A DNA stretch of 64,000 nt, from positions 2,857,742 to 2,921,741 of the forward strand of contig NC_014216.1 in NCBI RefSeq assembly GCF_000092205.1, written 5' to 3'. Both the position numbers and the translations under genes were made by a program. Shown one piece after another: positions 3,851-19,325 of this stretch. Numbering within the stretch: the first letter of the stretch is position 1; the number at the start of each line of letters is the position of its first letter. Source of the stretch: Desulfurivibrio alkaliphilus AHT 2 (GTDB taxonomy: Bacteria > Desulfobacterota > Desulfobulbia > Desulfobulbales > Desulfurivibrionaceae). Below the pieces are notes generated by a model. It searched no databases, had not been told where the DNA came from, and saw nothing but the letters and a program-made list of their open reading frames with translations.

Positions 3851-4221
3851 AAGAGGTTATCGCCATTGTCCGGATCAACATGATGAACCAGACCAAGCAG
3901 GCCCTCACCGACTGCGGCGTCGATGCCTTCTTCGCCCACGAGGCCCAGGGCCGGGGCCAGGGCTTTGTCAACCCCCTGCTGCTGGCGGGGGCGGAACAGG
4001 GCTATGAGGAAGCCGCCGCCCTGCTGGGCGAAAAGGGCAAGCTCTACCCCAAACGGGTGCTGACCGCGGTGGTGGACGACAGCATGGTCAAGTGCGTGGT
4101 GGAAACCATCATCAACACCAACCAGACCGGCAAGCCCGGCGACGGCAAGGTATTCGTCCTGCCGATGAGCGACGCCATCCGGGTGCGAACCGGGGAAGCC
4201 GGACTCAAGGCCATATCATAA
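3847..4221 (+). CDS. nifI2: NifI2, PII-family nitrogenase regulator
   Basis: Second PII-like subunit of the nitrogenase switch, about 124 residues: begins MKEVIAIVRINMMNQTKQAL and ends with the conserved GKPGDGKVFVLPMSDAIRVRTGE segment, the B-loop/C-loop part of PII proteins. The T-loop region (EAQGRGQGFVNP) is longer than in NifI1. Translationally coupled to nifI1 through an ATGA overlap and followed 26 bases later by nifD. The pair suggests post-translational ammonium switch-off of nitrogenase by the NifI complex; no draT or draG is visible in this window. Confidence 0.95.
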   Translation: MKEVIAIVRINMMNQTKQALTDCGVDAFFAHEAQGRGQGFVNPLLLAGAEQGYEEAAALLGEKGKLYPKRVLTAVVDDSMVKCVVETIINTNQTGKPGDGKVFVLPMSDAIRVRTGEAGLKAIS

Positions 4222-4247: not shown

Positions 4248-5885
4248 ATGGGAACAGCAATCGACAGCAAGGCGGCTGCCTGGAACGCAGAAGAGGTCAA
4301 GGCGGAGCTGCTGAAAAAATATCCGCCCAAGGTGGCCCGCAAGCGCGCCAAACAGATATTGATCAACGAGGCCCTGGAGAATGAAACTCCGGAAATAAGC
4401 GCCAACGTCCGGACCATCCCCGGCATCATCACCATGCGCGGCTGTACCTACGCCGGCTGCAAGGGGGTAATCATGGGGCCGACCCGGGACATCGTCAACC
4501 TGGTCCACGGCCCCATCGGCTGCAGCTTTTACGCCTGGCTGACCCGGCGCAACCAGACCGACGCCGGCCCGGACGGAGAAAATTACATGAACTACTGCTT
4601 CTCCACCGACATGCAGGAGCAGGACATCATTTTCGGCGGCGAGAAGAAGCTGGCCGCCGCCATCCAGGAGGCCTACGACCTCTTTCACCCCAGGTCGATC
4701 GCAGTGTTCGCCACCTGCCCGGTGGGGCTGATCGGCGACGATATTCACACCGTGGCCGCCAAGATGAAGGAGAAGCTGGGCGACTGCAACGTCTATGCCT
4801 TCTCCTGCGAGGGCTACAAGGGGGTCAGCCAGTCCGCCGGCCACCATATCGCCAATAACCAGGTCTTCCGCCATATCGTGGGGGAAAACGACGAGGTCAA
4901 GCCCGGCAAATTTAAAATCAACCTGCTGGGGGAATACAACATCGGTGGCGATGGTTTCGAGATCGACCGGCTCTTTGAGAAGTGCGGGATCACCTGCATC
5001 TCCACCTTCTCCGGCAACTCGACCTACGACCAGTTTGCCTCGGCCCACACCGCCGATCTCAACGCGGTGATGTGCCACCGCTCCATCAACTATGTGGCCG
5101 ACATGCTGGAGACCAAGTTCGGGATTCCCTGGATCAAGGTCAACTTCATCGGGGCCGCCGCCACCGCCAAGTCGTTGCGCAAGATCGCCGAGTATTTCGG
5201 CGACAAAAAGCTGATCGCCCGGGTGGAGGAGGTGATCGCCGAGGAGATGCCGGCGGTGGAAGCGGTGGCGGCCGAGGTGCGGCCCCGCACCGAGGGCAAA
5301 ACGGCGATGATGTTTGTCGGCGGCTCCCGGGCTCATCATTACAAGGAACTGTTCAACGAGATGGGCATGAAGACCATCGCCGCTGGCTACGAGTTCGGCC
5401 ACCGCGACGATTACGAGGGGCGGCGGGTAATCCCCGACATCAGGGTGGATGCCGACAGCCGTAACATTGAAGAGATCGAGGTGGAGGCCGACCCCACCCG
5501 CTACCAGCCGCGCAAGAGCCCCAAGGAGCTCGAAGCGCTGGAGAAGGCCGGTTACCAGTTCAAGTACTACGACGGGTTGATCCCGGACATGGACAACGGC
5601 ACCCTGGTCATCGACGACCTCAACCAGTACGAGGCGGAAAAGCTGGTGGAGCTGATTAAGCCGGATATCTTCTGCGCCGGAATCAAGGAGAAGTTCTCGG
5701 TCCAGAAGCTGGGAGTGCCGATGAAACAACTCCACAGCTACGACTCCGGCGGCCCTTATGCCGGTTTCCAAGGGGCCGTCAACTTCTACCGGGAGATCGA
5801 CCGGCTGGTAAGCTCCAAGGTCTGGGGCTATCTGAAGGCCCCCTGGCAGCGGGACCCGCAACTCTCGGCTTCATATAATTATTGA
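4248..5885 (+). CDS. nifD: NifD, nitrogenase MoFe protein alpha chain
   Basis: Alpha subunit carrying the FeMo cofactor and sharing the P-cluster. P-cluster cysteines are visible in MRGCTYAGCKG, HGPIGCSFY and FATCPVGLIGDD. The FeMoco cysteine lies in LNAVMCHRSINYV and the cofactor histidine in KQLHSYDSGGPYAGF. About 545 residues, longer than the ~490 of proteobacterial NifD because of an insert (the acidic DSRNIEEIEVEADP region and following), as in clostridial-type nitrogenase. Start ATG 4248 has GGGAG eight bases upstream. Presence of nifE, nifN, nifB and nifV in the window agrees with a Mo enzyme. Confidence 0.97.
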   Translation: MGTAIDSKAAAWNAEEVKAELLKKYPPKVARKRAKQILINEALENETPEISANVRTIPGIITMRGCTYAGCKGVIMGPTRDIVNLVHGPIGCSFYAWLTRRNQTDAGPDGENYMNYCFSTDMQEQDIIFGGEKKLAAAIQEAYDLFHPRSIAVFATCPVGLIGDDIHTVAAKMKEKLGDCNVYAFSCEGYKGVSQSAGHHIANNQVFRHIVGENDEVKPGKFKINLLGEYNIGGDGFEIDRLFEKCGITCISTFSGNSTYDQFASAHTADLNAVMCHRSINYVADMLETKFGIPWIKVNFIGAAATAKSLRKIAEYFGDKKLIARVEEVIAEEMPAVEAVAAEVRPRTEGKTAMMFVGGSRAHHYKELFNEMGMKTIAAGYEFGHRDDYEGRRVIPDIRVDADSRNIEEIEVEADPTRYQPRKSPKELEALEKAGYQFKYYDGLIPDMDNGTLVIDDLNQYEAEKLVELIKPDIFCAGIKEKFSVQKLGVPMKQLHSYDSGGPYAGFQGAVNFYREIDRLVSSKVWGYLKAPWQRDPQLSASYNY

Positions 5886-7658: not shown

Positions 7659-7880
7659 ATGGCCAAGAAAGACGCGGAGAACTTTTTGATTGCCGGCGGG
7701 GAGGACCGCGCCATGCGGTCCCGTTACGATGCCATCAAAACCATGGAAGATTTCGTGGCCGCCGCCAACGGCGAAGGCTATGCTTTCACCATCGAGGAGT
7801 TCCAGGCAGTGCTACGGGAGGCCGGCGATTCCTTCGACCTGATCGGCAACCCGGCCAAACGCCAGATTTGGTGGGTGTGA
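7659..7880 (+). CDS. Nif11-domain small protein
   Basis: 73-residue protein. The middle (MEDFVAAANGEGYAFTIEEFQAVLREAG) matches the pattern of the Nif11 domain, known from short proteins near nif genes and from leader peptides of ribosomal natural products. No peptide-modifying enzyme is encoded nearby, so a nif-linked role is more likely than a precursor peptide. ACAGGAGCAAGGCC precedes the ATG. Function of nif-associated Nif11 proteins is not established. It is the last gene before the accessory island. Confidence 0.75.
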   Translation: MAKKDAENFLIAGGEDRAMRSRYDAIKTMEDFVAAANGEGYAFTIEEFQAVLREAGDSFDLIGNPAKRQIWWV

Positions 7881-8300
7881 ATCCGGTCAATTTTGTCCAT
7901 GATCGCCACACTTCTACTGATTTATACCGGCTTATAGCATAAAACCCGTATACGCCGGTATAAATCAGTAGAAGTCAATATTTTTAAATGGAGCCGTTTC
8001 ACAAAGTAGGTAGAACACTTCTCCAGGTTGATAGCCCTTCGCAGTTGTGTTCGAGCTGTTTTACCACCAATATTTTCAGTCACATTCCTGTTCCAGGAAC
8101 TCCATGAAGTGGCATACATTTTGCTCTCTGAAAATTTAATACCAAGTGCAGGCTAGATGGTCAAGCATTGGGGTCGTTGTGAAATTTTTTCAAAATGGTG
8201 CCCCTTAAAAAGACTTGACCAGAGATTGAAAAGCGGTTAAATTTGCATACTATAGTTATCGGCAAGAAAATTAAGTATGCAAAGAATGGGGGAGTTTTCA
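7881..8300. other. Intergenic junction nif operon / accessory island
   Basis: No gene is supported. Composition shifts from GC-rich to AT-rich within this stretch, which marks the left edge of the accessory island. It contains the long palindrome at 7911-7974. A 65-codon minus-strand reading frame covers 7922-8119 but has no recognisable motif. Confidence 0.5.
7911..7974. repeat. Perfect 21-base inverted repeat (64-base hairpin)
   Basis: Arms 7911-7931 and 7954-7974 are perfectly complementary (outer CTTCTACTGA, inner TACCGGC) around a 22-base loop; after one mismatch the pairing continues for four more bases (TATA). There is no T tract. It sits just after the nif11 stop codon at the composition break, so it may be the trace of a mobile element or a strong transcript end. 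Confidence 0.8.
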
Positions 8301-9104
8301 ATGTATGGTGAACCTTCTAAGGCCCAAAAAGTAACTGGATACACGATATATAATGCCGAACAACAGAGACGGACGAAACGAAACGACTTGCCAGATTTTT
8401 ACCCAGACTTGCCTGAAAAAAAGTATGACATAATTTATGCTGACCCGCCTTGGGATTATGGCGGCAAACTACAGTTTGACAAGAGCAGCAAATCGGTTGA
8501 AGAGATAGATTTAAGTAGAAAAATATTTATCAGTTCGGCTAATTTTAAATATCCGACGATAAAAACAAAAGTTCTGAAAAAAATCCCCATTTATGAAATT
8601 GCAAAAGAAGATTGTTTGCTATTTATGTGGGTTACTAATCCGCACCTAGCTCAAGGGATAGAGCTAGGAACTTCTTGGGGGTTTGAGTATAAAACGGTTG
8701 CATTTGTCTGGGACAAGATGGTTCACAACCCTGGGCAATATACACTCTCATATTGCGAGTTATGTTTGGTGTTTAAGAGAGGAAAGATCCCTAGACCGCG
8801 AGGGGCAAGAAATATCAAACAACTTGTTCGTGTTCCTCGTGGAAAACACAGCGAGAAACCATTGGAAGTATTGAAGAACATAGAAAAGATGTTTCCAACA
8901 CAAGACAAAATAGAATTATTTGCTCGTCACCAACCAAATGGATGGGATGTATGGGGGCTTGATGTCAGGGAAGAGTATGAATCTGGCGAAACTAAGCAAG
9001 AAGAGGTGCTATATGCTCCTCGAAGTGGTCAAATAACACTGTGGGATCAGATGGGTCACGCCAAAAGAAAAAATGAGCAGTATGATTTCCATACCAACAA
9101 GTAA
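8301..9104 (+). CDS. MT-A70/MunI-type adenine-N6 DNA methyltransferase
   Basis: Modification enzyme of a type II restriction-modification system. It carries the catalytic DPPW in YDIIYADPPWDYGG (about residues 46-50) and has MT-A70-family features: LLFMWVTNPHLAQG, KTVAFVWDKM, and the SAM-site region GKHSEKPLEVLKNIEKMFP / IELFARHQPNGWDVWG. MT-A70 proteins include the M.MunI-like enzymes (CAATTG). The ATG at 8301 is preferred because GGGGGAG at 8288-8294 precedes it; ATGs at 8277 and 8286 are in frame but lack a good site. About 267 residues. AT-rich compared with nif genes. It converges with, and its last ~110 bases overlap, the end of the endonuclease gene on the other strand. Confidence 0.9.
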   Translation: MYGEPSKAQKVTGYTIYNAEQQRRTKRNDLPDFYPDLPEKKYDIIYADPPWDYGGKLQFDKSSKSVEEIDLSRKIFISSANFKYPTIKTKVLKKIPIYEIAKEDCLLFMWVTNPHLAQGIELGTSWGFEYKTVAFVWDKMVHNPGQYTLSYCELCLVFKRGKIPRPRGARNIKQLVRVPRGKHSEKPLEVLKNIEKMFPTQDKIELFARHQPNGWDVWGLDVREEYESGETKQEEVLYAPRSGQITLWDQMGHAKRKNEQYDFHTNK

Positions 9105-9198
9105 TCTCTCTGACCCTACAGGGATCTCGGGTTATATCACCCTGGAAAACTGTCCAGAATGGCAAAGCGTTTCCGCCGATATTTCCCTCTTTCCTTAG

Positions 9199-11157
9199 AC
9201 AGGAGTTTAACCACTCAGCCCAGTATTAAGCGACAAAATAACGCATATTCAAAAAGCTATTCCTGCTCAGGCTGTAAGACCCCATTCACAACTTTATAGC
9301 CCAAAGCCCGAAGAATTGCCGCCTGTTTTTCGTTGGGTTCCTCCAGGCGTCGTTGGGCCTTTCGTGCACCGGTGGGCCAGAGCAGGCAGGAATGCAGGGT
9401 GCGCAGGCGCTCCATGGCCTCGGCGGCGGAGATCCTGAGCCCGTTACGGGCCAGGCGAATTTCCAGCAGACGCAGATAGGCCAGGGCAACTACGCAGGTG
9501 AAGATATGGCACCTGATCTTGCCGTCGGTCCAGTGGCGCAGGGGCAGCATGGCCACCATTTCATGATCCTTGCTCTGGCGGAAGCTCTGCTCCACCACGT
9601 AGCGGTCCAGGCCGGCCTGGACGATCTCGTCGGTGTTCCAGTCAGGATGATCGGTCACCAGGATGTTCTTGCCGAAGTAGTCGATGTGGCGGCCGATCCG
9701 ATAGTGGTTTTTGCGACAGTTCATCTGTAAGCGCTTGCCGTCTCGAAACAGCTCCACTCGGTATAGATCATCCGGCAGGTGCAGTTCCCGGCAGAGGTTG
9801 AGATAACGCTCCTGCACTGTCGCGGGGTTACGCCACTGGGCTGCCTGGCCGTTGACCTTGTGGCGCATCAGGTGCACCTCTTCCTCCAAACGCAGCATTT
9901 TCTGCTCGAAGGCGTAACGCTGCTTGGTGGCGGTGCGGGGATTATAGGTGACCACCACACTGCGCTCTCTGCCCCACAACTCTCGGCTGGTACGCCAGGC
10001 CAGCAACAGGTCGTCATCGCGGCCTTTGGCCTTGAGCTGCCGGTTCTTGGCGGTATCGACTACCTGGAAATGCTTGCGATCCACATGGATCAGCTCTTCG
10101 GCGTAATGGGGTGAATAGCTGGTGACGAAATGGAGCCGGTCATTGGCGTCGATGGCGGCGATATTCTCCTCGGCGTTGATCCCCTTGTCGAAAACAATAG
10201 TCATGGTGCCTTGGTCGCCCCGGCCGGCAACTTCGAACAGTTCCTGGGCCAGCTTGAGGAACACCTTGGAATCGTGCCGGTTGCCTTCATACTCCCGGTA
10301 AAATAGCGGCAACCGGTTGTCCCTGGCCACCAGCAAAGCCACCCCGACCTGCCGCAGCCAGTGACGCCCCTCCTTGTTTCGACCTCGTTGGGCCAGTTCC
10401 GAAGAGGTGTTGCCGGCCATGAAGGTGTAATAGTTGGTGGTATCGAACATCACCGCATCCGCCGATGATGGCTCCAATTCCGCCAGCTTACGGAAAAAGA
10501 GATCGGCCACCGCCGCCAGCTTGGCACTGTCCATCTTCTCCCACTGCTTCCAGTAGGCCTGGGAGCTCAAGGCATCAAGGGCCACCGGCCGGATCTGCTG
10601 GATGGCGGTGGTGCGATACCACTCCGCCAAGGCCCGTTTGGACTTGGGGGCCACCATCCGATTGGCGATGGCATAGAAGAAATAATCCCCCACCGAAGGC
10701 GAGCCCTTTCTTTCCGCCGGCGACAGCACCGAATCGACCAGGCCGGCGATGTTGACCTCCCGGTCCAGCAGCTCGGCCAGCCACAGCGAGCCGAACTCCT
10801 GCACCTGGATCCGCTCGACCTCCCGGCTACCAGCACCCTTGGCCAGCTCCAGCAACCGCTCGGGGCTGCCGAGATAGACCTGGTTGACCACCTTGGGTTT
10901 GCCATCAACCCGGGCGGTCTCCCGCAGGTAATAGTAGGGTCTGCCTTTTTTGATTTTTTTGTGTATGTGTGCCATGCCCCAGCTTATTAAGTAGGGGCTC
11001 ACGCTGTCAAGTAAAAAATGAATTATTTTTGCAAAAACAAAAAGAAAAAGTGTTTTCGGGGGTTAAGCTTGAGGGGTCTTACGGATTTACGGTCGGTAAT
11101 GTGCTGATTTTACGTTGTTATGATGTTGTGAACGACCTGCTGCGGTTAAACTCCTGT
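9199..11157. mobile_element. IS1634-type insertion sequence (about 1.96 kb)
   Basis: Ends carry a 14-base perfect terminal inverted repeat ACAGGAGTTTAACC (9199-9212 and, reversed, 11144-11157). TAG flanks both sides (9196-9198 and 11158-11160), a possible 3-base target duplication; TTAG is equally possible if the right end is one base shorter. It contains one large transposase gene and is inserted in the endonuclease gene. Its GC content resembles the nif genes rather than the AT-rich target. Confidence 0.9.
9257..10975 (-). CDS. IS1634-family DDE transposase
   Basis: Large transposase (about 572 residues from ATG 10975; an in-frame GTG lies at 11002). It begins MAHIHKKIKKGRPYYYLRE, typical of this group. 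DDE residues are likely in VMFDTTNYYTF, TIVFDKGINAEENI and VVEQSFRQSKDHE. An N-terminal region with DREVNIAGLVDSVL precedes the catalytic core. The frame is intact, so the element may still be able to move. It lies within 14-base inverted repeats. Confidence 0.9.
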   Translation of the reverse strand: MAHIHKKIKKGRPYYYLRETARVDGKPKVVNQVYLGSPERLLELAKGAGSREVERIQVQEFGSLWLAELLDREVNIAGLVDSVLSPAERKGSPSVGDYFFYAIANRMVAPKSKRALAEWYRTTAIQQIRPVALDALSSQAYWKQWEKMDSAKLAAVADLFFRKLAELEPSSADAVMFDTTNYYTFMAGNTSSELAQRGRNKEGRHWLRQVGVALLVARDNRLPLFYREYEGNRHDSKVFLKLAQELFEVAGRGDQGTMTIVFDKGINAEENIAAIDANDRLHFVTSYSPHYAEELIHVDRKHFQVVDTAKNRQLKAKGRDDDLLLAWRTSRELWGRERSVVVTYNPRTATKQRYAFEQKMLRLEEEVHLMRHKVNGQAAQWRNPATVQERYLNLCRELHLPDDLYRVELFRDGKRLQMNCRKNHYRIGRHIDYFGKNILVTDHPDWNTDEIVQAGLDRYVVEQSFRQSKDHEMVAMLPLRHWTDGKIRCHIFTCVVALAYLRLLEIRLARNGLRISAAEAMERLRTLHSCLLWPTGARKAQRRLEEPNEKQAAILRALGYKVVNGVLQPEQE

Positions 11158-11542
11158 TAGAATTTCAAGAAGGCCAGGGGTGAAGAATTTGCATGATCTT
11201 TCGTGGGCATTTCCACGCCCATCTGACCGTTTCCCACCCTCTACCCAGCCATCTTGACGCTTGACCTCAACATATATAGTCTTGCCAGTTCTTGTATTGT
11301 CTATGGCATAGTCTAAATAAACTCCATGTTTGGTAATAGGCTCTTGAGGAGTATAAATTTGAGACATTTCTGGCTCAGAGAGTTGGACGCTTACATAAAT
11401 ATTTGAAAATTCTTTTGGTTTCGCTCTTATTTGATATTCTGTGTCCTCGAAAACTGCTTTAAATGCATCATAGAAATTGCTTTCAGCCTTTCCTGCATTC
11501 TTTCCGCTATAATCCTGCCATTTCTTACGTAGTCGATTATGT

Positions 11543-11776
11543 TCACTTGCCATTATCAACAAACTCCAATAGTTCTATCAATTTAACGTCGAGAGCTTTA
11601 GCAATTTTCATCATATTGATAAGGGTAATATTTTTTTCTGCACGCTCTATCATGCCAATATAGGTACGGTGTAGACTCGCCTTAGAAGCAAGCTCTTCTT
11701 GAGACAACCCTTTATTTTTGCGGGCCAATTTGACTCTTCCGCCAAATTGAATTAGCGCCTGGTTCTTCGTTGACAT
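11543..11776 (-). CDS. Controller (C) protein of the restriction system
   Basis: 77-residue Xre/Cro-type helix-turn-helix protein: FGGRVKLARKNKGLSQEELASKASLHRTYIGMIERAEKNITLINMMKIAKAL. This is the size and arrangement of C proteins that time endonuclease expression in type II restriction-modification systems, binding an operator in front of their own gene. The last bases overlap the start of the endonuclease gene, so C and R are one transcript. AGGGGG lies a few bases before the ATG. A 12-base inverted repeat at 11801-11837 is a likely C-box. Confidence 0.88.
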   Translation of the reverse strand: MSTKNQALIQFGGRVKLARKNKGLSQEELASKASLHRTYIGMIERAEKNITLINMMKIAKALDVKLIELLEFVDNGK

Positions 11777-11800
11777 AGTTACCCCCTAATATGGATATCT

Positions 11801-11837
11801 AACTTTAGTATGCATTTTTAGTCCACATACTAAAGTT
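11801..11837. promoter_or_regulatory. Palindromic operator upstream of the C gene
   Basis: Perfect 12-base inverted repeat AACTTTAGTATG / CATACTAAAGTT (arms 11801-11812 and 11826-11837), about 25-60 bases upstream of the controller start. Position and symmetry fit a C-protein operator or the control region of the C-R transcript. Confidence 0.6.
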
Positions 11838-12062
11838 GGCATTTTGTGGAGGGTTGTGAAGAATAGAGAAAATATCGGTGGGCGGATGAAGGTAGGCGTT
11901 ATGGTTTTTTTTGTCGGTAAAATGTTATTAAATTCAACGAGGTGAGAGACATGGAAAACAAAAAAATCACCATTGCAAACATCGCTTATGGTCAGCGGGC
12001 GGCGCCAATGTACTTGCCGCGTTAGCGCCGTCATCGTTTACACCGTCCGCTGAATTATTTTG
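11838..12062. other. Intergenic stretch with attC-like sequence
   Basis: No gene supported. On the minus strand, directly at the stop codon of the ATPase gene, the sequence begins TAACAAAATAATTCAGCGGAC and ends near GCCCGCTGACCATAAGCG (about 12065 to 11983). The TCAGCGG/CCGCTGA and CGGCGC/GCGCCG pairs fold back on each other. This recalls an integron attC site placed after a cassette stop codon, but the right-hand GTTAG core is not intact, so the call is tentative. Confidence 0.3.
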
Positions 12063-13637
12063 TTAGTGTCTCTTTTTGAATTTTGGTTTTGTCGGCAAAC
12101 CAAATTGTGCTTGCTCACTCCTCTGAACTGAAATTAAGTGGTCACGGAATGCCGGATGAATCTCCCAGAGGGCTTTTTGCATGTCATTCCACCGTTCATT
12201 ACACACAAAATTAGGGTCATCTGAAGGGTATACAAAGCGGTAGTTATCCTTTTCCCGAGAGTCTGAGATTCTGGGAAAAATAAACCCGATTAAGAACAGA
12301 AAGGACCATAATCTAAAGAGTTGCTCGTCATCATCTGGATTTATGATCATTCCAGAAAGCTTAATCGAGAAAGAAGATGGTAAAGATTTAAGATGTTTTT
12401 TGACCTGTTCTGATCCTGCCAAAAATGAGCCTTCATCATATTCCAATCTTGCAAAAGATCGAATTATTTGGGGTAAAGAGGGGCATTCCTTCTCGTATTC
12501 TTGGGAAAGCAATGTTGCTCGTTCTTCTGAATAAACAGGCATAACCTTCGCAAGAATATCGTCTGTGATTTTTGTTACAGGTGGCTCCAGAGCCTGCTTG
12601 GCAAGCATGTTGACCAGTTGGACCGCATCTCTCGGACGTTCTCTTGACCTTGACTTGATAATATCCCGCCAGCTGCTACGTTTCTGGCTTGTTGGCATTT
12701 TGGGCCTTTCTCCTTCAAAAAAGAAAGGATAATGAGGTTTGTTTTCCTTTGCTCCACATTTTTTAGCTGCCAATACTAATCGACGCTCAATAATTTCCTG
12801 CACATGGTCAAGGTTTGGATTTAGTGCAAATACGAGGCGAAGAAAATGGTCCCATTGGTCACGTTGGCCAACTTCTTCTTTTGACAACTCGCGCCAAATC
12901 TCATCCCGTATGGATATTATTACTCTTGATTTTGGGATTCTTTGGGCGATTTCTCGCGCTGCAAGCAATACTGCCCATATCCTATTTAAATGACCAGGGG
13001 AGCCTGGAGAAGCGACTTGATCTGTGTCATCAATAAATAGATAAAAGGCTCCAGATGATTCATTGATGTTTGTTTTGAGTGCTTTTTCAAGTTTTGTTGA
13101 ACTTGCACGATCAGCATTTGGCAGCACACTGGTAAAATCTACTGTTGTAATCGGTTTTGATACAGCGGCTAGGAACCTTGAGAGTTTTCCCACAAAGTCC
13201 ATATCTTGGACGCCTGACGCTATAGCCTCATTGTATAAAACTGCATTATCTCCTTTAACATATCCAGTAAGCTGAGAACCAATATTCTCAGCGAGAGCCT
13301 TTAGGAGCCCTTTGTAAGCAATTCTGGTTAACTCCCCCGATGAGCCTTCATGGGGCATATTGTCAAGATCAATGTCTAAAGGTTTCAGAAGTAGTGCAGG
13401 TATATTTGCCTTGAGCAACATATTAATGGAAAAATCAATAATTGCACTTTTACCTGATCCTTTTTTCCCAACTAGTAATCTAGGACTATTTGGTGGAGGT
13501 GTAATTATTTTTTTATATTCATCAGTTTGAACGAATGCTTCATTAAGGATATGCTTCTCACCTTCTGTTGTGCCAGTGGGAACATAATATAGAAGAGCGT
13601 TCATCCTTTCTTCAATAAGTGATGCTTGCTGGTTCAT
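12063..13637 (-). CDS. P-loop ATPase (STAND/KAP-like), candidate defence protein
   Basis: 524-residue cytosolic ATPase. Walker A GKKGSGKS at about residues 57-64, Walker B FYLFIDDTD at about 198-206, and a sensor-like SRVIISIRDEIWREL segment near 240. The C-terminal half is mostly helical with no recognised domain. The general layout resembles Sll1717-type P-loop ATPases and KAP/STAND NTPases, groups often found in anti-phage islands. It follows the membrane-protein gene by 25 bases on the same strand, so the two probably act together. AT-rich, unlike the nif genes, and next to a restriction-modification system. The defence role is inferred from context. Confidence 0.65.
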   Translation of the reverse strand: MNQQASLIEERMNALLYYVPTGTTEGEKHILNEAFVQTDEYKKIITPPPNSPRLLVGKKGSGKSAIIDFSINMLLKANIPALLLKPLDIDLDNMPHEGSSGELTRIAYKGLLKALAENIGSQLTGYVKGDNAVLYNEAIASGVQDMDFVGKLSRFLAAVSKPITTVDFTSVLPNADRASSTKLEKALKTNINESSGAFYLFIDDTDQVASPGSPGHLNRIWAVLLAAREIAQRIPKSRVIISIRDEIWRELSKEEVGQRDQWDHFLRLVFALNPNLDHVQEIIERRLVLAAKKCGAKENKPHYPFFFEGERPKMPTSQKRSSWRDIIKSRSRERPRDAVQLVNMLAKQALEPPVTKITDDILAKVMPVYSEERATLLSQEYEKECPSLPQIIRSFARLEYDEGSFLAGSEQVKKHLKSLPSSFSIKLSGMIINPDDDEQLFRLWSFLFLIGFIFPRISDSREKDNYRFVYPSDDPNFVCNERWNDMQKALWEIHPAFRDHLISVQRSEQAQFGLPTKPKFKKRH

Positions 13638-13662
13638 ATGAATTTTCCCTTTTACGCTTACG

Positions 13663-14271
13663 CTACTGATAAGCCGCGCCTTCTTGAGCGCCAGAACTTG
13701 GCGCAGCAGTATCCAGCGTCGGCTTAATTGGCTGGTTAGTAATAGATTTCTCTGTTGTCTCTTTGAGATCGTTTCCTTTCGCCTGAGTTTCGTCCTGTAC
13801 TTTTGGCGACACAGTTTCGGTCCTCACGGATTCAAGGGCTGGAAGTTCTTTGATTTCTTTGTGCAAATCTGATCGAACAGTCCAGGCTAGAGATGCCATT
13901 GAAACGATAATTGCAAGGCCAGAAAATATTGCAGGCACCCATAATTGCCATCTTTTTGAGCGGAGTGACGAGAGCACAGATACAAGGTAAGGAAAATGTA
14001 CGCAGTCTTTATCTGTGTCTGCTCTTCGCGCAAATAAATGCACCCAACTGTTGTCACTCTTTTGATATGAATATCGGTTATCAAGATCGTAATACAGTCT
14101 CCCCCATACTATATCAACATCAACACGCAAAGACTTTGCGACCGCTGTGATGTCAACCGGGACGTAATTCTTGTTCGTTCGTGCGGGGTTACCTTCCTTC
14201 CATTCCTCGTAATCATCTACGTGTCGCTTGTATATTTCTTCAATTATCTGAAGATCAGATGGAACCTTCAT
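13663..14271 (-). CDS. Membrane protein partner of the ATPase, unknown family
   Basis: About 202 residues from ATG 14271 (AGGAG a few bases upstream). The N-terminal ~100 residues are soluble and mixed helix/strand, with a possible winged-helix-like segment (VPVDITAVAKSLRVDVDIVWGRLYYDL). One strong transmembrane helix, LWVPAIFSGLAIIVSMASLAW, lies at about residues 110-132. The C-terminal ~65 residues are low-complexity, rich in Thr, Glu, Lys and Pro. I do not recognise the family. It is the first gene of a two-gene unit with the P-loop ATPase. A membrane-anchored partner of an NTPase could be an effector or receptor; this is inference. Confidence 0.6.
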   Translation of the reverse strand: MKVPSDLQIIEEIYKRHVDDYEEWKEGNPARTNKNYVPVDITAVAKSLRVDVDIVWGRLYYDLDNRYSYQKSDNSWVHLFARRADTDKDCVHFPYLVSVLSSLRSKRWQLWVPAIFSGLAIIVSMASLAWTVRSDLHKEIKELPALESVRTETVSPKVQDETQAKGNDLKETTEKSITNQPIKPTLDTAAPSSGAQEGAAYQ

Positions 14272-14567
14272 CTGCACTCCTAACGTCAAAATTGATCATC
14301 GGGCCGACATATTAGCAGCAAATGAACCATCGTTTATTTCCGTCTGCTCGAACGCATTGGTGGTAAAATGTTTTGCAATTCAACTGCAAGGTAAACAACA
14401 ATGCACAAATTAGATATTTTATTTATTTAATGAAACCGAGAAAGGAATGACGGGCTCTAATGCTGAAATAACGGCATTCATTACTTGGTATGTTGTTAAT
14501 GATTTTGGCGAAGTTAATAGATTTTTAAAATAATACGATAGAAACTGCAATGATATAAAAATAGATT
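14272..14567. other. AT-rich intergenic stretch
   Basis: No convincing gene. A plus-strand 28-codon frame starts at ATG 14447 (MTGSNAEITAFITWYVVNDFGEV...) but has no well-placed ribosome binding site and no recognisable family; it may be a gene remnant. The promoter of the membrane-protein/ATPase pair should lie in the left half. Confidence 0.4.
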
Positions 14568-15152
14568 TTACAAATATTCATACTTCGTTGTCTCAAGAGA
14601 TTTTAAAAAATTTCCCCACTTACAACAGATATATCCTTTCGGGTTTCGACGAGGAACAATTACGATTGAATCAATGGCATCAACCAGTATCGGTTCTTTG
14701 TGCCAAATTTCAACGTAAGGAATGCAGTTGTTACCAGAAACTTCAGAGCCATGACAAAATGGGTTTAGAACAAGATTGGTTAGTAATTTACCATTTAATA
14801 TAAGGAGAAATGTTATAGGTGAAAAATTTGTTATGAATTCTTCCCATGCTTCAAATGATAAATATATATTAAATGGTCTTTGTCTGAAATCGAATAAACA
14901 GACCCAATTATTTAAGTACCCTATATTATGTTTTGACTGTTCATAAGTTGGGTTAAATTTGCTTTCGCCGTTATTTGTAGCGCAATTAGGCAATATTGTT
15001 TTTGTTTTGATAATTAATTTGAGCGTTTCTACTTTGCATCTATAGAATATTTTGTTGTCTATTATTGGAAACAATGGCGCGATAGGTGTTGAATTAAAAC
15101 TTTCTATTGAATCTTTATACCCATCTTTGTCTTCGTATGGGATATCGTTTAA

Positions 15153-16686
15153 CTGAACTTTCGGACTTGACCTAACTGGCCGTTAAAATGTTTTTATTTC
15201 TGCCATTTCCCGCTGGGGATAACAACATATGACAAGCTGTATCCATCAATACATTGATGATTCTTCGCACGGCATCTTCGGTGAGCTCACCGAGTTGCCG
15301 TATTTTGTCCAGGGCCAGGGTCATGATGCGCTGGAGCGCTTCGAGCAGGGTGATGTCCTGCATCTCCTCGGCACAGGCGTAGAAGAGGGAGCCCAAAGCC
15401 CGCTCATCGTTGTCCATCCGCTGCTGGAAGGAGAGGAAGCAGTAACGGATCATGACTATGGTGGCATGGGCGATCAGTCCGTCGAAATTCCGCATCTGCA
15501 CCTCCTTTTCCAGGTTGAGGTAGTGCTTGACCACTTTGAACATCACCTCGATATCCCACCGTTTACCGTAGGTCTGAACGATCTCCTCCTCGCCGAGTTC
15601 CAGATCGGTGGACAACAGGGCCAGCCAGTTTTTGGTGCTGCGATGCCGGACGAAGACAATTTTGGCCGGCAAGCCACATGTCAGCTCCACCGTGGTGCTG
15701 GCCAGGATTTTGGCCCGCCCCGGTCGTTTGTGCAGGTTCCGGTAGATTTCCCCCACTCGCCGGGAAACACCCTGATGCCGGAAACGGATATTGGGCATGT
15801 CCTTCAGCATGCAGATCACTGGCCTATGCCGGTGCAGTTTCCTGATGATCGAGGGAAAGGCGAACCAACTGTCCATCAGGATGTAACCGAAGTCGATGCC
15901 GCTTGCCATGATCCGCTTGATCATACCATCCAGCAGATCGGTGGACTTGGTCACCGCCTCTTGCCGGCGCCGGGCAGCGCAACAACGCCGGTCAAGTCGT
16001 CTTTTCTCACCCCACAAACGTTTCTCCGGTTCACGCGAAGAAAGCAAGGCAAAGTCCACCGGCAAGGTGTTGTAACCATCCGACCAGGCCATGGTCAGCA
16101 GCTTGAAGCCCCTGGTAAACCGTTTACGGCAGTTGTCACGCACCCTGGCCAGCAACTCCACCTTGCGGGCATGGGGCCGTTCGTAGGTGCTGTCGTCGAT
16201 GATCAGCACCTTCCGTTTTGGCTCCTCGGTCAGCAGGGAGAAAACGGTGGCGATTTTGGCCGCCAGTTGCAGCAGCAGCCGGCGCCAGTTGTAGTTGGCC
16301 CCCTGCAGGAGGTCATAGGCGGCGTCCTTGCCAAAGCCCTGCTCCCGTTCCACGATTCCGCGAAAGAAGTTCTCCTGGTTGAAGGCCAGCATGAAGATGG
16401 ACTTCAGCAGCCGAACCGGCGAAGCGCCCCGCAGCTTACGGATACCCGCCCGGTTGAGCAGGGTGCCGAGGGAGAAGTTGTCAAAGAACTGATCGACTTT
16501 GCTGTTCAGTTGCCTTACTGCTTGCTGTTCTTGGCTGCCCGTGATATTTTGCATTCACGCCTCTTCTTTTTGATTTTATTGAGTTTTTGGCAATTCCCAA
16601 TATATCAAAAAGCAAGGGGCGTTTCACGTTTTATTTAGTTAAATCAGGGCTTTGAGTTTATTTTTTTCTCAAGTCCGAAAGTTCAG
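15153..16686. mobile_element. IS4-type insertion sequence (1534 bp)
   Basis: 18-base perfect terminal inverted repeats CTGAACTTTCGGACTTGA (15153-15170) and its reverse complement (16669-16686). A 6-base direct repeat GTTTAA flanks it (15147-15152 and 16687-16692), the target duplication. One intact transposase gene inside. It is GC-rich, unlike the AT-rich gene it interrupts. Confidence 0.93.
15172..16554 (-). CDS. IS4-family DDE transposase
   Basis: 460-residue transposase. Catalytic residues are likely the aspartate of VLIIDDSTYERP, the aspartate of YILMDSWFAFP and the glutamate in TYGKRWDIEVMFKVVKHYL, which fits the Y-(2)-R-(3)-E-(6)-K signature of IS4 transposases. N-terminal part has helical DNA-binding character (LLNRAGIRKLRGASPVRLLKS). 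The frame is full length between perfect inverted repeats, so the element may be active. Confidence 0.92.
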   Translation of the reverse strand: MQNITGSQEQQAVRQLNSKVDQFFDNFSLGTLLNRAGIRKLRGASPVRLLKSIFMLAFNQENFFRGIVEREQGFGKDAAYDLLQGANYNWRRLLLQLAAKIATVFSLLTEEPKRKVLIIDDSTYERPHARKVELLARVRDNCRKRFTRGFKLLTMAWSDGYNTLPVDFALLSSREPEKRLWGEKRRLDRRCCAARRRQEAVTKSTDLLDGMIKRIMASGIDFGYILMDSWFAFPSIIRKLHRHRPVICMLKDMPNIRFRHQGVSRRVGEIYRNLHKRPGRAKILASTTVELTCGLPAKIVFVRHRSTKNWLALLSTDLELGEEEIVQTYGKRWDIEVMFKVVKHYLNLEKEVQMRNFDGLIAHATIVMIRYCFLSFQQRMDNDERALGSLFYACAEEMQDITLLEALQRIMTLALDKIRQLGELTEDAVRRIINVLMDTACHMLLSPAGNGRNKNILTAS

Positions 16687-16935
16687 GTTTAATGTAAACG
16701 GGTATTTTATCATGTTTCACCAAAATTATTTTAAATGCTTTTAATCAACAACCAATTAAGCATGTATTGCTTTTATCTAATTCAATTTGTGTATTTATAT
16801 GGTGCCAGCAAGTGATTCAACAAACCTGAATATCACCCCGTTTTGGGAGATAGCTATCCACATCACCCTTACTTTTCTGTGTATCATTACAACCGCGATG
16901 ATATCCACCAGACGGGCCAAGCCCCCCGCGCCATA

Positions 16936-18318
16936 TCACTCGCCCGCTCCCAGCGCCTCCAGCAGCCGCCGGTAATCCGGCGATTGGCGCAGGATGCGGC
17001 CGCCGGCCTCGGTCAGCATTTGCACCTGCTCATCCGGGAGTTGCAGGGCGGTCTTGATTTCCTGCAATTGGCGGCGCAGCTCCGGGTCGGGTTCCGCCTC
17101 GAAGGTCACCCGGGAAAAGTAGTATTCGATGGGGTTCTCCTCCTCGGCATCCTCGAACTGGCTCTTGATCGTCTCGATGTAGCTGCGGACCTGCTCGATG
17201 GAGTCGGACGAATAGTTCTCCATCGGGGTGGTCGCCGCCGCGTTGAGGACGGTGAAGATCGAGGGCGGGCGGGCGCTGCGGTCCATCTTGGCGGCCGTCT
17301 TCGGCTGGGCGTCCACCACGATGATCACCAGCCGTTTGATCTGCCGCCGGCCCTGGTGCTTGTTGAACTTGGCCAGGATCGAGAGCGGGCTGGAGACCGA
17401 GTTCAGCCCCAGCATCGGCTCGCGCAGGCCCAGGTTGTCGGCCAGGCCGCCGTCGCTCAGGTGGATGTAGGCCCGTTGCGGGTCTTCGTAAGACTCCCAG
17501 GCCACGGCCCGGTCGTAGCGGGCCGAGTTCAGCTCCAGATCCTTTTTGGCCCCGCGAATCCAGGCCGGGGTGGTGTAGCCGCAGCTCTCTTTGGGGTGGT
17601 TGGTGAAGGTGAGCGGGGTGAAGGCCACCGGGAAGGCCGAGGAGGCGGTGACCCCGCGGGAGAGCTGGATTTGGTCCAGGTCCGAGCAGAGCCGGTCGAA
17701 GTGGTCCTGGATGAAGGAGAAGCCGGCGCCGATGCTGATATCCGTCGCGTTGAGGACGATGAAGGGGCGCTGCCGGGGCAGGTCGGCGAAGGTGGCCCGG
17801 TTGAAGATCGCCTCCCCGTAGTAGCGGTCCGCCAGATCGCTGCGGCCGTAAGTCCACGACCCCAGCCGCCCCCAGTTCCAGGGGGCCAGCACCCGCCCGA
17901 TCAGGGCGCTTTCGATCCGCAGGGCCAGGACATCTTGCGGGAAGTCGGCCAGAAAGCGTTCCTGGCCGTAGAGGCCGTAATAGGCTGCGGCGAAGCTGCC
18001 GCCGGATACCGAGGAGATAATGTCCACCTCGTCGAGCAGGGTGGCGTCGGAGCCCGGCAGCCGGGCGGCAGCAAGTTCCTGCATCGCCCCGTAGGCGAAG
18101 GCGGCCGCCCGGGTTCCACCCCCGGAGAGGGCCAGGATGATGAAGGTTTCATCGCTGTTGCCGGGGTTCAGCGCCAGGTTCTGAAACCGGTAGCCGCTGG
18201 CGGGATCGACCTTGGTTAGCGGCGGGTTTTCCGGAAACGAGGCGCAGCCGCCCAGGAGCAGCAGCACCAGGAGCAGGAAGGCCGGCCAGAGCCGCTTGGG
18301 GTTGGCGGCGGCCATCAT
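16936..18318 (-). CDS. Patatin-like phospholipase lipoprotein
   Basis: 460 residues with a lipoprotein signal peptide (hydrophobic stretch then LLLLGGCASF lipobox, lipidated Cys at about 26). Patatin signatures follow: oxyanion-hole LSGGGTRAAAFAYGA, nucleophile motif SSVSGGSFAAAY (G-x-S-x-G) and the dyad aspartate in LSDGGLADNLG. Likely a serine acyl hydrolase at the outer membrane or periplasm acting on phospholipid or lipid ester. It overlaps the small upstream gene by four bases (ATGA), so the two are co-expressed. GC-rich like the core genome. Substrate unknown. Confidence 0.88.
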   Translation of the reverse strand: MMAAANPKRLWPAFLLLVLLLLGGCASFPENPPLTKVDPASGYRFQNLALNPGNSDETFIILALSGGGTRAAAFAYGAMQELAAARLPGSDATLLDEVDIISSVSGGSFAAAYYGLYGQERFLADFPQDVLALRIESALIGRVLAPWNWGRLGSWTYGRSDLADRYYGEAIFNRATFADLPRQRPFIVLNATDISIGAGFSFIQDHFDRLCSDLDQIQLSRGVTASSAFPVAFTPLTFTNHPKESCGYTTPAWIRGAKKDLELNSARYDRAVAWESYEDPQRAYIHLSDGGLADNLGLREPMLGLNSVSSPLSILAKFNKHQGRRQIKRLVIIVVDAQPKTAAKMDRSARPPSIFTVLNAAATTPMENYSSDSIEQVRSYIETIKSQFEDAEEENPIEYYFSRVTFEAEPDPELRRQLQEIKTALQLPDEQVQMLTEAGGRILRQSPDYRRLLEALGAGE

Positions 18319-18527
18319 GGCGTGAACTCAATAATCAGGGGGTTTCTTCTGGTGGTGGCGGAAACCTGGCGGGTGATGGCGGCGGGCTGGTAGTTTCGCG
18401 GTTCGCCGAGGTGGAAGGTGTAGGTGCCGGATTCGCCCAGCATCAGCACCTCGTTGGTATCCCCCAGCGGCTGGTCATCGACGAATACGGTGCGCTGTTC
18501 GCTGAAAACAACCTTGATCCAGTTCAT
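18315..18527 (-). CDS. Small protein with PEGA-like beta fold
   Basis: About 70 residues from ATG 18527, which follows GGGAGGG; a longer frame to 18581 is less likely. The sequence MNWIKVVFSEQRTVFVDDQPLGDTNEVLMLGESGTYTFHLG... PLIIEFTP has the alternating strand pattern and 'V-(x)-DD-x-x-x-G ... v-x-l-G' rhythm of small surface beta domains (PEGA-like). No signal peptide. Function unknown; coupled to the patatin-like lipoprotein by an ATGA overlap. Confidence 0.5.
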   Translation of the reverse strand: MNWIKVVFSEQRTVFVDDQPLGDTNEVLMLGESGTYTFHLGEPRNYQPAAITRQVSATTRRNPLIIEFTP

Positions 18528-18540
18528 TTCCCTCCCCCCG

Positions 18541-18740
18541 CTACGGGCCGTCGGCAACGTCCATTCGCTGAAAATGCCCAACCGGAATTAGTACCCTTAG
18601 CCAAGGAGAAAGATGATTGCAAGCAAAAAGGCGCCGGCCCAGCTCGTAGCGCATCTCGACGCTGGTTTCCTGGTCGCCGGTTGCGGCGAAAAAGGGTAAG
18701 GCGGGGGACGTTATGTTGTGAGGACGTCGAAACGCGCCAT
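18541..18740 (-). pseudogene. Decayed ccdB-like toxin gene
   Basis: Directly after ccdA, with TGATG stop/start overlap, an ATG at 18740 opens MARFDV, the usual beginning of CcdB gyrase toxins, but a stop follows after nine codons (by 18711). A different frame then continues with a weakly CcdB-like WLRVLIPVG segment to 18541. The likely reading is a toxin gene broken by frameshift. The remnant beyond the first codons is too diverged to be sure. Confidence 0.45.
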
Positions 18741-18988
18741 CAAAAACTCCGGTATCGGGCCAGAGGCAAACCGTTCCGCTCGGCATATTCGTTGGAACTC
18801 TCCAGCGCCGCCTGGTTCTCCTCCAACCACAATTGCGCCCGCCGTTCTGCGGTTGCCTGCGCCACACCTTGCTCCGCCGCCCGCGAAATATTTACTTGCA
18901 GCAACCGGGCTTCATCCAGCAAACGCGCACTGATCGATATGTTGGTCGCCCGCCTGGTGCCCCTAAGTGCCGACTGAACTGTTCCCAT
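18740..18988 (-). CDS. ccdA: CcdA-family antitoxin
   Basis: About 82 residues from ATG 18988, preceded by AAGG nine bases upstream; an ATG at 18997 is alternative. The N-terminal part (TNISISARLLDEARLLQVNISRAAEQGV) is a ribbon-helix-helix DNA-binding region and the C-terminal part (WLEENQAALESSNEYAERNGLPLARYR) is the CcdB-neutralising tail, very characteristic of CcdA. The downstream toxin frame appears broken, so this may be an orphan antitoxin. It stands at the right edge of the accessory island. Confidence 0.88.
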   Translation of the reverse strand: MGTVQSALRGTRRATNISISARLLDEARLLQVNISRAAEQGVAQATAERRAQLWLEENQAALESSNEYAERNGLPLARYRSF

Positions 18989-19325
18989 GGTTGTCATCCT
19001 TACGGTTGTTGCAATTATCTAATAAACTTATCTCAAATAGTATCCATAGACAATGCGCACGTCAACTGTAAGGCCTGTATCAGGGAAAGAGGAAGAAGGG
19101 GACAGAGCTATTTTTTGACATTATCCGAACCTTATTGTTGTGTTTCTTTCCTTTTGGTTGTGTTGCCGCCGTGAGGTTTTATCCCGGCAAAATCGTGGTC
19201 GGCAAATAATGGCCGTATTCCGGGCTGGTGGCTGATTGGCACAGGCCTTGCTCTTTAGGTTGGTCATGGTCGATTCCGCAAGAGGCGGCAGCATGAGTTC
19301 AGTAGCGATCAACAAGGGGAAAAAC
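18989..19325. other. Intergenic region before nifE
   Basis: No gene supported. It carries the nifE sigma-54 promoter at 19237-19252. No strict TGT-N10-ACA NifA site was found. The sequence AAGGGGACAGAGC near 19094-19106 resembles the GGGGACAG stems found elsewhere in the window (7603, 34929). Confidence 0.4.
19237..19252 (+). promoter_or_regulatory. Sigma-54 promoter of nifE
   Basis: TGGCAC at 19237-19242, five bases, TTGCT at 19248-19252; GG and GC are ten bases apart. Projected start near 19263, which excludes the in-frame ATG at 19236 as the nifE start and supports 19293 or 19326. Confidence 0.8.

What the first reader, a model, noticed from the sequence alone, without database searches (positions are those of the whole stretch)
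8992..11553. MunI-like restriction endonuclease gene cut by an IS in a way that can be reversed
The methyltransferase, controller and both halves of the endonuclease are still present. In silico, joining 11553-11158 to 9195-8992 (one TAG copy, no IS) gives a continuous frame of about 199 residues, the usual MunI size, with LLEIL joined to RKEGN in frame and catalytic D/ExK residues kept. The host would keep the protective methylase while losing cutting; a precise excision could restore it. The endonuclease's last ~110 bases overlap the methylase gene on the other strand, so the missing half is easily overlooked.
Basis: partly seen in the sequence, partly recalled or inferred. Interest (0 to 1): 0.75.

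Follow-up and report, generated by a model that had tools for sequence, protein, structure and literature searches.

The report
Restriction enzyme gene split by IS
A soda-lake bacterium carries a MunI-type DNA-cutting defence system whose cutting gene was recently split by a jumping element while the protective methylase and its regulator stayed whole; this is a clean but ordinary example of how such systems lose their cutting half.

Summary
In a closed genome whose size equals that of Desulfurivibrio alkaliphilus AHT2, a type II R-M system (controller and endonuclease on minus, MT-A70 methylase convergent on plus) has its endonuclease split by a 1957-bp IS1634-family element. The halves match Pfam MunI at adjoining positions (3-131, 132-193), and the joined flanks read 199 residues without a stop, as in intact relatives. 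A second identical IS copy splits an acylphosphatase the same way. One correction: the target duplication is best read as 5 bp (TTAGA), not TAG; copy two then has TCAAA, as expected for IS1634.

The C-R/M layout recurs in relatives from several phyla, so this is a MunI-type system, acquired horizontally and broken recently. Loss of cutting with a probably active methylase is the likely state. 'Can be reversed' is not supported beyond what holds for any simple insertion: no second strain was available, the excision literature seen (10 listed of 21 papers) shows no precise excision of such elements, and the endonuclease has leucine where 31 of 31 relatives have the proline of the PD motif. New member of a known kind; low to modest interest.

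The parts
11543..11776 (-). Controller (C) protein, 77 aa, Cro/C1-type HTH
   Evidence: HTH_3 E 1.5e-15; PADLOC Control_protein E 1.2e-22; a controller-like gene upstream of R in 19 of 28 genome relatives
11158..11553 (-). 5' part of the MunI-type endonuclease gene (residues 1-132), holding the D, E and K of the PD-(D/E)XK motif; with three IS-derived residues (TGV) it ends as a 135-aa frame
   Evidence: PF11407 profile 3-131, E 5.7e-56; 1d02 E 5.5e-34; frame
8992..9195 (-). 3' part of the endonuclease gene (residues 133-199 and stop)
   Evidence: PF11407 profile 132-193, E 1.1e-20; 1d02 E 1.2e-15
9200..11156 (-). IS1634-family insertion sequence, 1957 bp, 13-bp terminal inverted repeats CAGGAGTTTAACC
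   Evidence: NF033559 306.8 bits; identical second copy near G000:C1:2353663-2355627; family end consensus from PMC2266710
9257..11002 (-). Transposase, 581-aa frame, intact
   Evidence: two copies in the genome, both without stops
9195..9199 (.). Target duplication copy TTAGA
   Evidence: sequence
11157..11161 (.). Target duplication copy TTAGA
   Evidence: sequence
8277..9104 (+). MT-A70-type DNA adenine methylase, up to 275 aa (start uncertain, perhaps 8301), convergent with the endonuclease; last 113 bases overlap the endonuclease tail
   Evidence: MT-A70 E 8.9e-21; PADLOC MTase_II E 2.5e-62; 84% to the methylase of intact relative L008 over 227 residues, no stops or gaps
11801..11837 (.). 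Probable controller operator before C: inverted repeat AACTTTAGTATG / CATACTAAAGTT
   Evidence: sequence; a similar pair lies before C in L008; function inferred
8245..8260 (+). Probable controller half-site before the methylase, GCATACTATAGTTATC
   Evidence: the same 16 bases lie before the L008 methylase; function inferred

Best explanation
A horizontally acquired MunI-type (probably CAATTG-specific) R-M system whose endonuclease was recently knocked out by a simple IS1634-family insertion. Shown from sequence: one gene split at codon 132/133, a 5-bp duplication, an identical IS copy elsewhere, and open methylase and controller frames. Inferred: the 135-aa fragment is inactive because it lacks the conserved last third of the protein; the methylase is still expressed and methylates the host, so losing cutting is harmless; the controller still regulates C and M; the state is an early step of decay towards a solitary methylase.
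For: Adjoining profile positions of the halves. No gap in residues 119-151 around the junction in any of the 30 of 32 relatives that cover it. The second IS copy splits an acylphosphatase between profile positions 27 and 28 with flanks fitting the same 5-bp rule, which argues against misassembly. Same C-R/M layout in intact relatives such as L008 and L013. Identical IS copies and no stop in either endonuclease half point to a recent event. R-M genes at 39-40% GC (1-kb windows 8001-9000 and 11001-12000) in a 60.29% GC genome (PMC5016858). No MunI hit in the other 57 relatives (38 of them of high quality) or in the other 394 genomes of a phylum sample, which overlaps the first set. No match to window 7877-19314 at the matching locus of G002.
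Against: No expression or methylation data. The methylase tail is about 40 residues longer than in L008, effect unknown. Leu80 may mean the enzyme was altered before the insertion, so the IS need not be the first lesion. No same-species strain was available to show an empty site. Two loci labelled Deltaproteobacteria (L015, L040) do hold the system, so absence from the phylum sample is not absence from all relatives of that older class. L029 has the endonuclease without a detected methylase, so the layout is not universal.
Confidence: 0.88

Rival explanations
1. Reversible switch: the IS excises precisely at a useful rate, so the population alternates between methylate-only and methylate-plus-cut states.
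For: The flanks join in frame; transposase frame intact; methylase kept.
Against: True in principle of any simple insertion. The discussion of one IS1634 paper speaks in general terms of double-strand breaks from IS excision and of cut-and-paste elements gaining copies at replication, not of precise repair (PMC4549789, passages). A search for IS1634 with excision found 21 papers and listed 10; titles and abstract starts of these show no precise excision of such an element, and only PMC4549789 was opened. Leu80 replaces a proline found in 31 of 31 relatives.
Confidence: 0.03
2. Both the split endonuclease and the methylase are non-functional: the whole locus is decaying.
For: Leu80 in the PD motif; methylase tail about 40 residues longer than in L008.
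Against: Methylase frame has no stops or gaps over 227 residues at 84% identity to L008, with pN 0.075 against pS 0.83; the half-site before M is identical to L008.
Confidence: 0.1
3. The split gene is an assembly artefact caused by the repeated IS.
For: Two identical IS copies exist.
Against: Each copy has its own matching 5-bp duplication and each splits one gene between adjoining profile positions; a mis-join would scramble the flanks.
Confidence: 0.02

Closest known systems
MunI restriction-modification system (CAATTG, PMC5896346 passage; structure 1d02)
   Same: Endonuclease halves match MunI along its length; GRGNAHERSCK segment and ExK shared
   Different: Endonuclease interrupted by an IS; Leu before the catalytic Asp; specificity not tested
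Intact MunI-type system on IMG/VR contig L008 (= L042)
   Same: Same C-R/M order, 199-aa endonuclease (79% identical over the first 132 residues, 73% over the rest), same half-site before M
   Different: No IS; methylase 228 aa and not overlapping the endonuclease
IS1634 family of insertion sequences
   Same: Transposase model NF033559; length within 1.5-2.0 kb, ends C-----YT, 5-bp duplication (flanks against family values in PMC2266710)
   Different: Nothing notable; the long variable duplications reported for two members are not seen here
Solitary (orphan) methylases left by loss of the endonuclease (recalled)
   Same: Methylase kept, cutting lost
   Different: Here the broken endonuclease and the controller are still present, so the event is recent

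Membership tests
MunI-type type II R-M system | Endonuclease of the RestrictionMunI family along the whole profile | tested here: met
   Two pieces at profile 3-131 and 132-193 of 193, both above the cut-off of 25 bits
MunI-type type II R-M system | Convergent MT-A70 methylase and upstream controller, as in relatives | tested here: met
   convergent methylase in 26 of 28 and controller-like gene in 19 of 28 genome relatives
MunI-type type II R-M system | PD-(D/E)XK catalytic motif | tested here: inconclusive
   D, E and K present (motif assignment recalled); P is L, against P in 31 of 31 relatives
MunI-type type II R-M system | Recognition and methylation of CAATTG | not testable with these tools
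   needs methylome or enzyme assay
IS1634 family | Transposase of the family | tested here: met
   NF033559 306.8 bits, cut-off 100
IS1634 family | Ends C-----YT and 5-6 bp AT-rich duplication | tested here: met
   CAGGAGTT ends; TTAGA and TCAAA (flanks; family values from PMC2266710). A related copy in G002 has an internal deletion and no matching duplication
Phase-variable R-M system | Evidence of both ON and OFF states in one lineage | not tested
   no second strain or reads available

The most novel reading that the evidence does not exclude
The IS works as a slow genetic switch on restriction: a permanently methylated lineage that can regain cutting by precise excision, held ready because controller and methylase stay under the C operator.
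Probability: 0.03. Interest if true: 0.5.

Novelty: new member of a known kind. Interest (0 to 1): 0.2.

Why it matters
It is a clear snapshot of an early step by which a type II R-M system may become a solitary methylase, with every part still readable and the lesion apparently recent. It also warns annotators that the second half of the endonuclease lies under the methylase tail. It predicts CAATTG methylation without cutting in the strain, which matters for anyone wishing to transform it.

Tried and rejected
A 3-bp duplication (TAG, and CAA at copy two) was first accepted from the flanks and then replaced by 5 bp after reading the family's end consensus.

A search for the endonuclease in plasmids gave no match and in phages one unannotated partial hit. 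An integron origin was considered because of an inverted repeat near 11993-12052. A pattern scan for it gave 16 matches in the window against a mean of 8.8 in shuffles (1 of 100 shuffles reached 16), scattered rather than clustered; a complete integron-type integrase exists in the genome but about 35 kb from the methylase gene. The idea was dropped, not refuted. pN/pS between window and L008 cannot be used as a ratio because synonymous sites are saturated. The lesion pattern in relatives (endonuclease 3 of 28, methylase 0 of 26) is suggestive only: numbers are small, nearly all are metagenome bins, and one case (L036) sits at a contig end. The scan behind these relatives confirmed 29 of 80 pattern matches, and 80 may be a cap.

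Literature searches for endonuclease genes disrupted by IS elements (5 papers, 15 listed of 54, 12 listed of 322) were seen as listings only, apart from PMC4444293, where one passage was seen and proved to concern prophage excision, and PMC4081073, where MunI passages were seen. That endonuclease loss leaves solitary methylases is therefore recalled, not cited.

Full report
Setting. The window lies in a single contig of 3,097,763 bases. That is exactly the genome size given for Desulfurivibrio alkaliphilus AHT2 (PMC5016858, table passage), so the host is very probably that soda-lake bacterium. A find in the main text of that paper gave 0 occurrences of 'restriction', 'transpos' and 'nitrogenase' as word starts; its supplements were not seen.

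The observation. The 5' part of the endonuclease (11553-11158, minus) and the 3' part (9195-8992, minus) match Pfam RestrictionMunI at profile positions 3-131 and 132-193 of 193. Both match the solved MunI chain 1d02. Joining the flanks in a script gives 199 residues with no internal stop. Intact relatives L008 and L009 also have 199 residues. In an alignment with 32 relatives, 30 cover the junction and none has a gap in residues 119-151; L012 and L014 were cut short there by in-frame stops. Nothing appears to be missing from the gene.

The insertion. The interrupting element encodes an intact IS1634-family transposase. A second copy, identical over the element, lies near 2,353,663-2,355,627. 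The published family consensus has ends C-----YT and 5-6 bp AT-rich duplications (PMC2266710, passages). Moving each end in by one base gives ends CAGGAGTT and duplications TTAGA here and TCAAA at the second copy (flanks), which fits on both counts. The second copy splits an acylphosphatase at profile positions 27/28. Two insertions with the same geometry, each splitting one gene cleanly, make misassembly very unlikely. The same paper notes that two members of the family produce long, variable duplications, which is not what is seen here.

The R-M system. The controller (11543-11776) matches PADLOC Control_protein models. The methylase (8277-9104, plus; start perhaps 8301) is MT-A70, with 84% identity over 227 residues to that of L008 and no stops or gaps. 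A genome-collection scan gave 29 loci (80 pattern matches, perhaps a cap); I dropped L041 (37%, partial). Of the remaining 28, the methylase was found convergent in 26 (not found in L029, nor in L039, whose contig ends there; partial at a contig end in L020) and a controller-like gene upstream in 19 (some loci have little upstream DNA). The layout is thus the family's usual one. The 113-base overlap of the methylase tail with the endonuclease is larger than in these relatives: L008 has none, and the largest I computed coordinates is about 77 bases (L025). Upstream of C is an inverted repeat AACTTTAGTATG/CATACTAAAGTT with a similar pair in L008; before M, GCATACTATAGTTATC is identical in the two. 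I take these as controller sites, by inference. CAATTG as the MunI site is from PMC5896346 (passage).

Origin. The R-M genes are at 39-40% GC in a 60.29% genome. MunI is absent from the other 57 relatives searched, 38 of them of high quality, and from the other 394 genomes of a phylum sample that overlaps the first, although the genome collection gave two loci labelled Deltaproteobacteria (L015, L040). In G002, same genus, the genes that flank this region are present. These are nitrogenase-like genes by my reading of the translation; no family search was run on them. There the flanking matches lie about 2.3 kb apart, against 11.4 kb here, two small flanking genes are in swapped order, and window 7877-19314 has no match. 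The IS, in contrast, occurs in the genus: transposases 97% and 92% identical in G002 and G003, of 58 genomes searched (three more rows of weak matches in two other genomes are distant relatives only). So a foreign R-M system was probably hit by a resident IS. The G002 copy carries an internal deletion and no matching duplication.

State of the enzyme. Asp, Glu and Lys of the motif are in the 5' part, but the residue before the Asp is Leu80, where 31 of 31 relatives with a residue there have Pro. The proline is not strictly required in PD-(D/E)XK enzymes at large (recalled), so activity of a whole enzyme is uncertain. The window otherwise departs from one more of 83 columns conserved at 90% or more. 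The fragment left is 135 residues and lacks the conserved GDITRDPCRVREI region, so I expect it to be inactive. Nonsynonymous divergence from L008 is alike in the two parts (pN 0.134 and 0.141) with synonymous sites saturated, so neither half shows long decay.

Reversibility. Nothing singles this insertion out as reversible. One paper on an IS1634 member (PMC4549789, passages) shows active proliferation and, in general terms, mentions damage from IS excision. The search for IS1634 with excision found 21 papers and listed 10, seen as titles and abstract starts except that one.

Pattern in relatives. Among the 28 loci, the endonuclease carries a candidate lesion in three: L014 (one in-frame stop), L028 (frameshift near codon 15) and L036 (first 50 residues missing beside a contig end). 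The methylase carries none in the 26 where it was found. This fits the expectation that cutting is lost first, but the numbers are small and nearly all are metagenome bins.

Verdict. Real, recent, and of a known kind: an R-M system whose endonuclease was inactivated by an IS while the methylase was kept.

Noticed in passing
L009/L043, L010/L044, L011/L045 around 5001-5606: MunI-type endonuclease genes on viral contigs of 56-203 kb with no relative of the L008 methylase found by tblastn within about 5 kb (other methylase kinds not sought); in L009 next to RecA-like and 5'-3' exonuclease genes. Possibly a phage nuclease against host DNA, with phage DNA protected otherwise.
   Followed up: partly
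G000:C1:2353663-2355627 (L002): Second identical IS1634-family copy splits an acylphosphatase gene with a TCAAA duplication.
   Followed up: yes
L014 4001-4594, L028 near 3940-4001, L036 1-100: Endonuclease lesions (stop, frameshift, missing N-terminus) in relatives whose methylase frame is open.
   Followed up: partly
window 7910-7975: 27-base inverted repeat with 12 bases between the arms at the left edge of the AT-rich region; found only here in the genome. Perhaps a terminator or an island edge.
   Followed up: partly
G000:C1:2830311-2831261 (L046): Integron-type integrase (TIGR02249, 449.9 bits, cut-off 265) about 35 kb from the methylase gene.
   Followed up: no
window 12063-13637: Sll1717-family P-loop ATPase (NF047389, E 1.2e-52) next to the R-M system in the same AT-rich stretch; no PADLOC match.
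   Followed up: partly
L012 4821-5195: Viral-contig MunI relative with two in-frame stops: a decayed copy or another genetic code.
   Followed up: no
L029 4001-4591: Endonuclease of the family in a locus labelled Aenigmatarchaeota with no methylase relative found in the 8.6 kb held.
   Followed up: no
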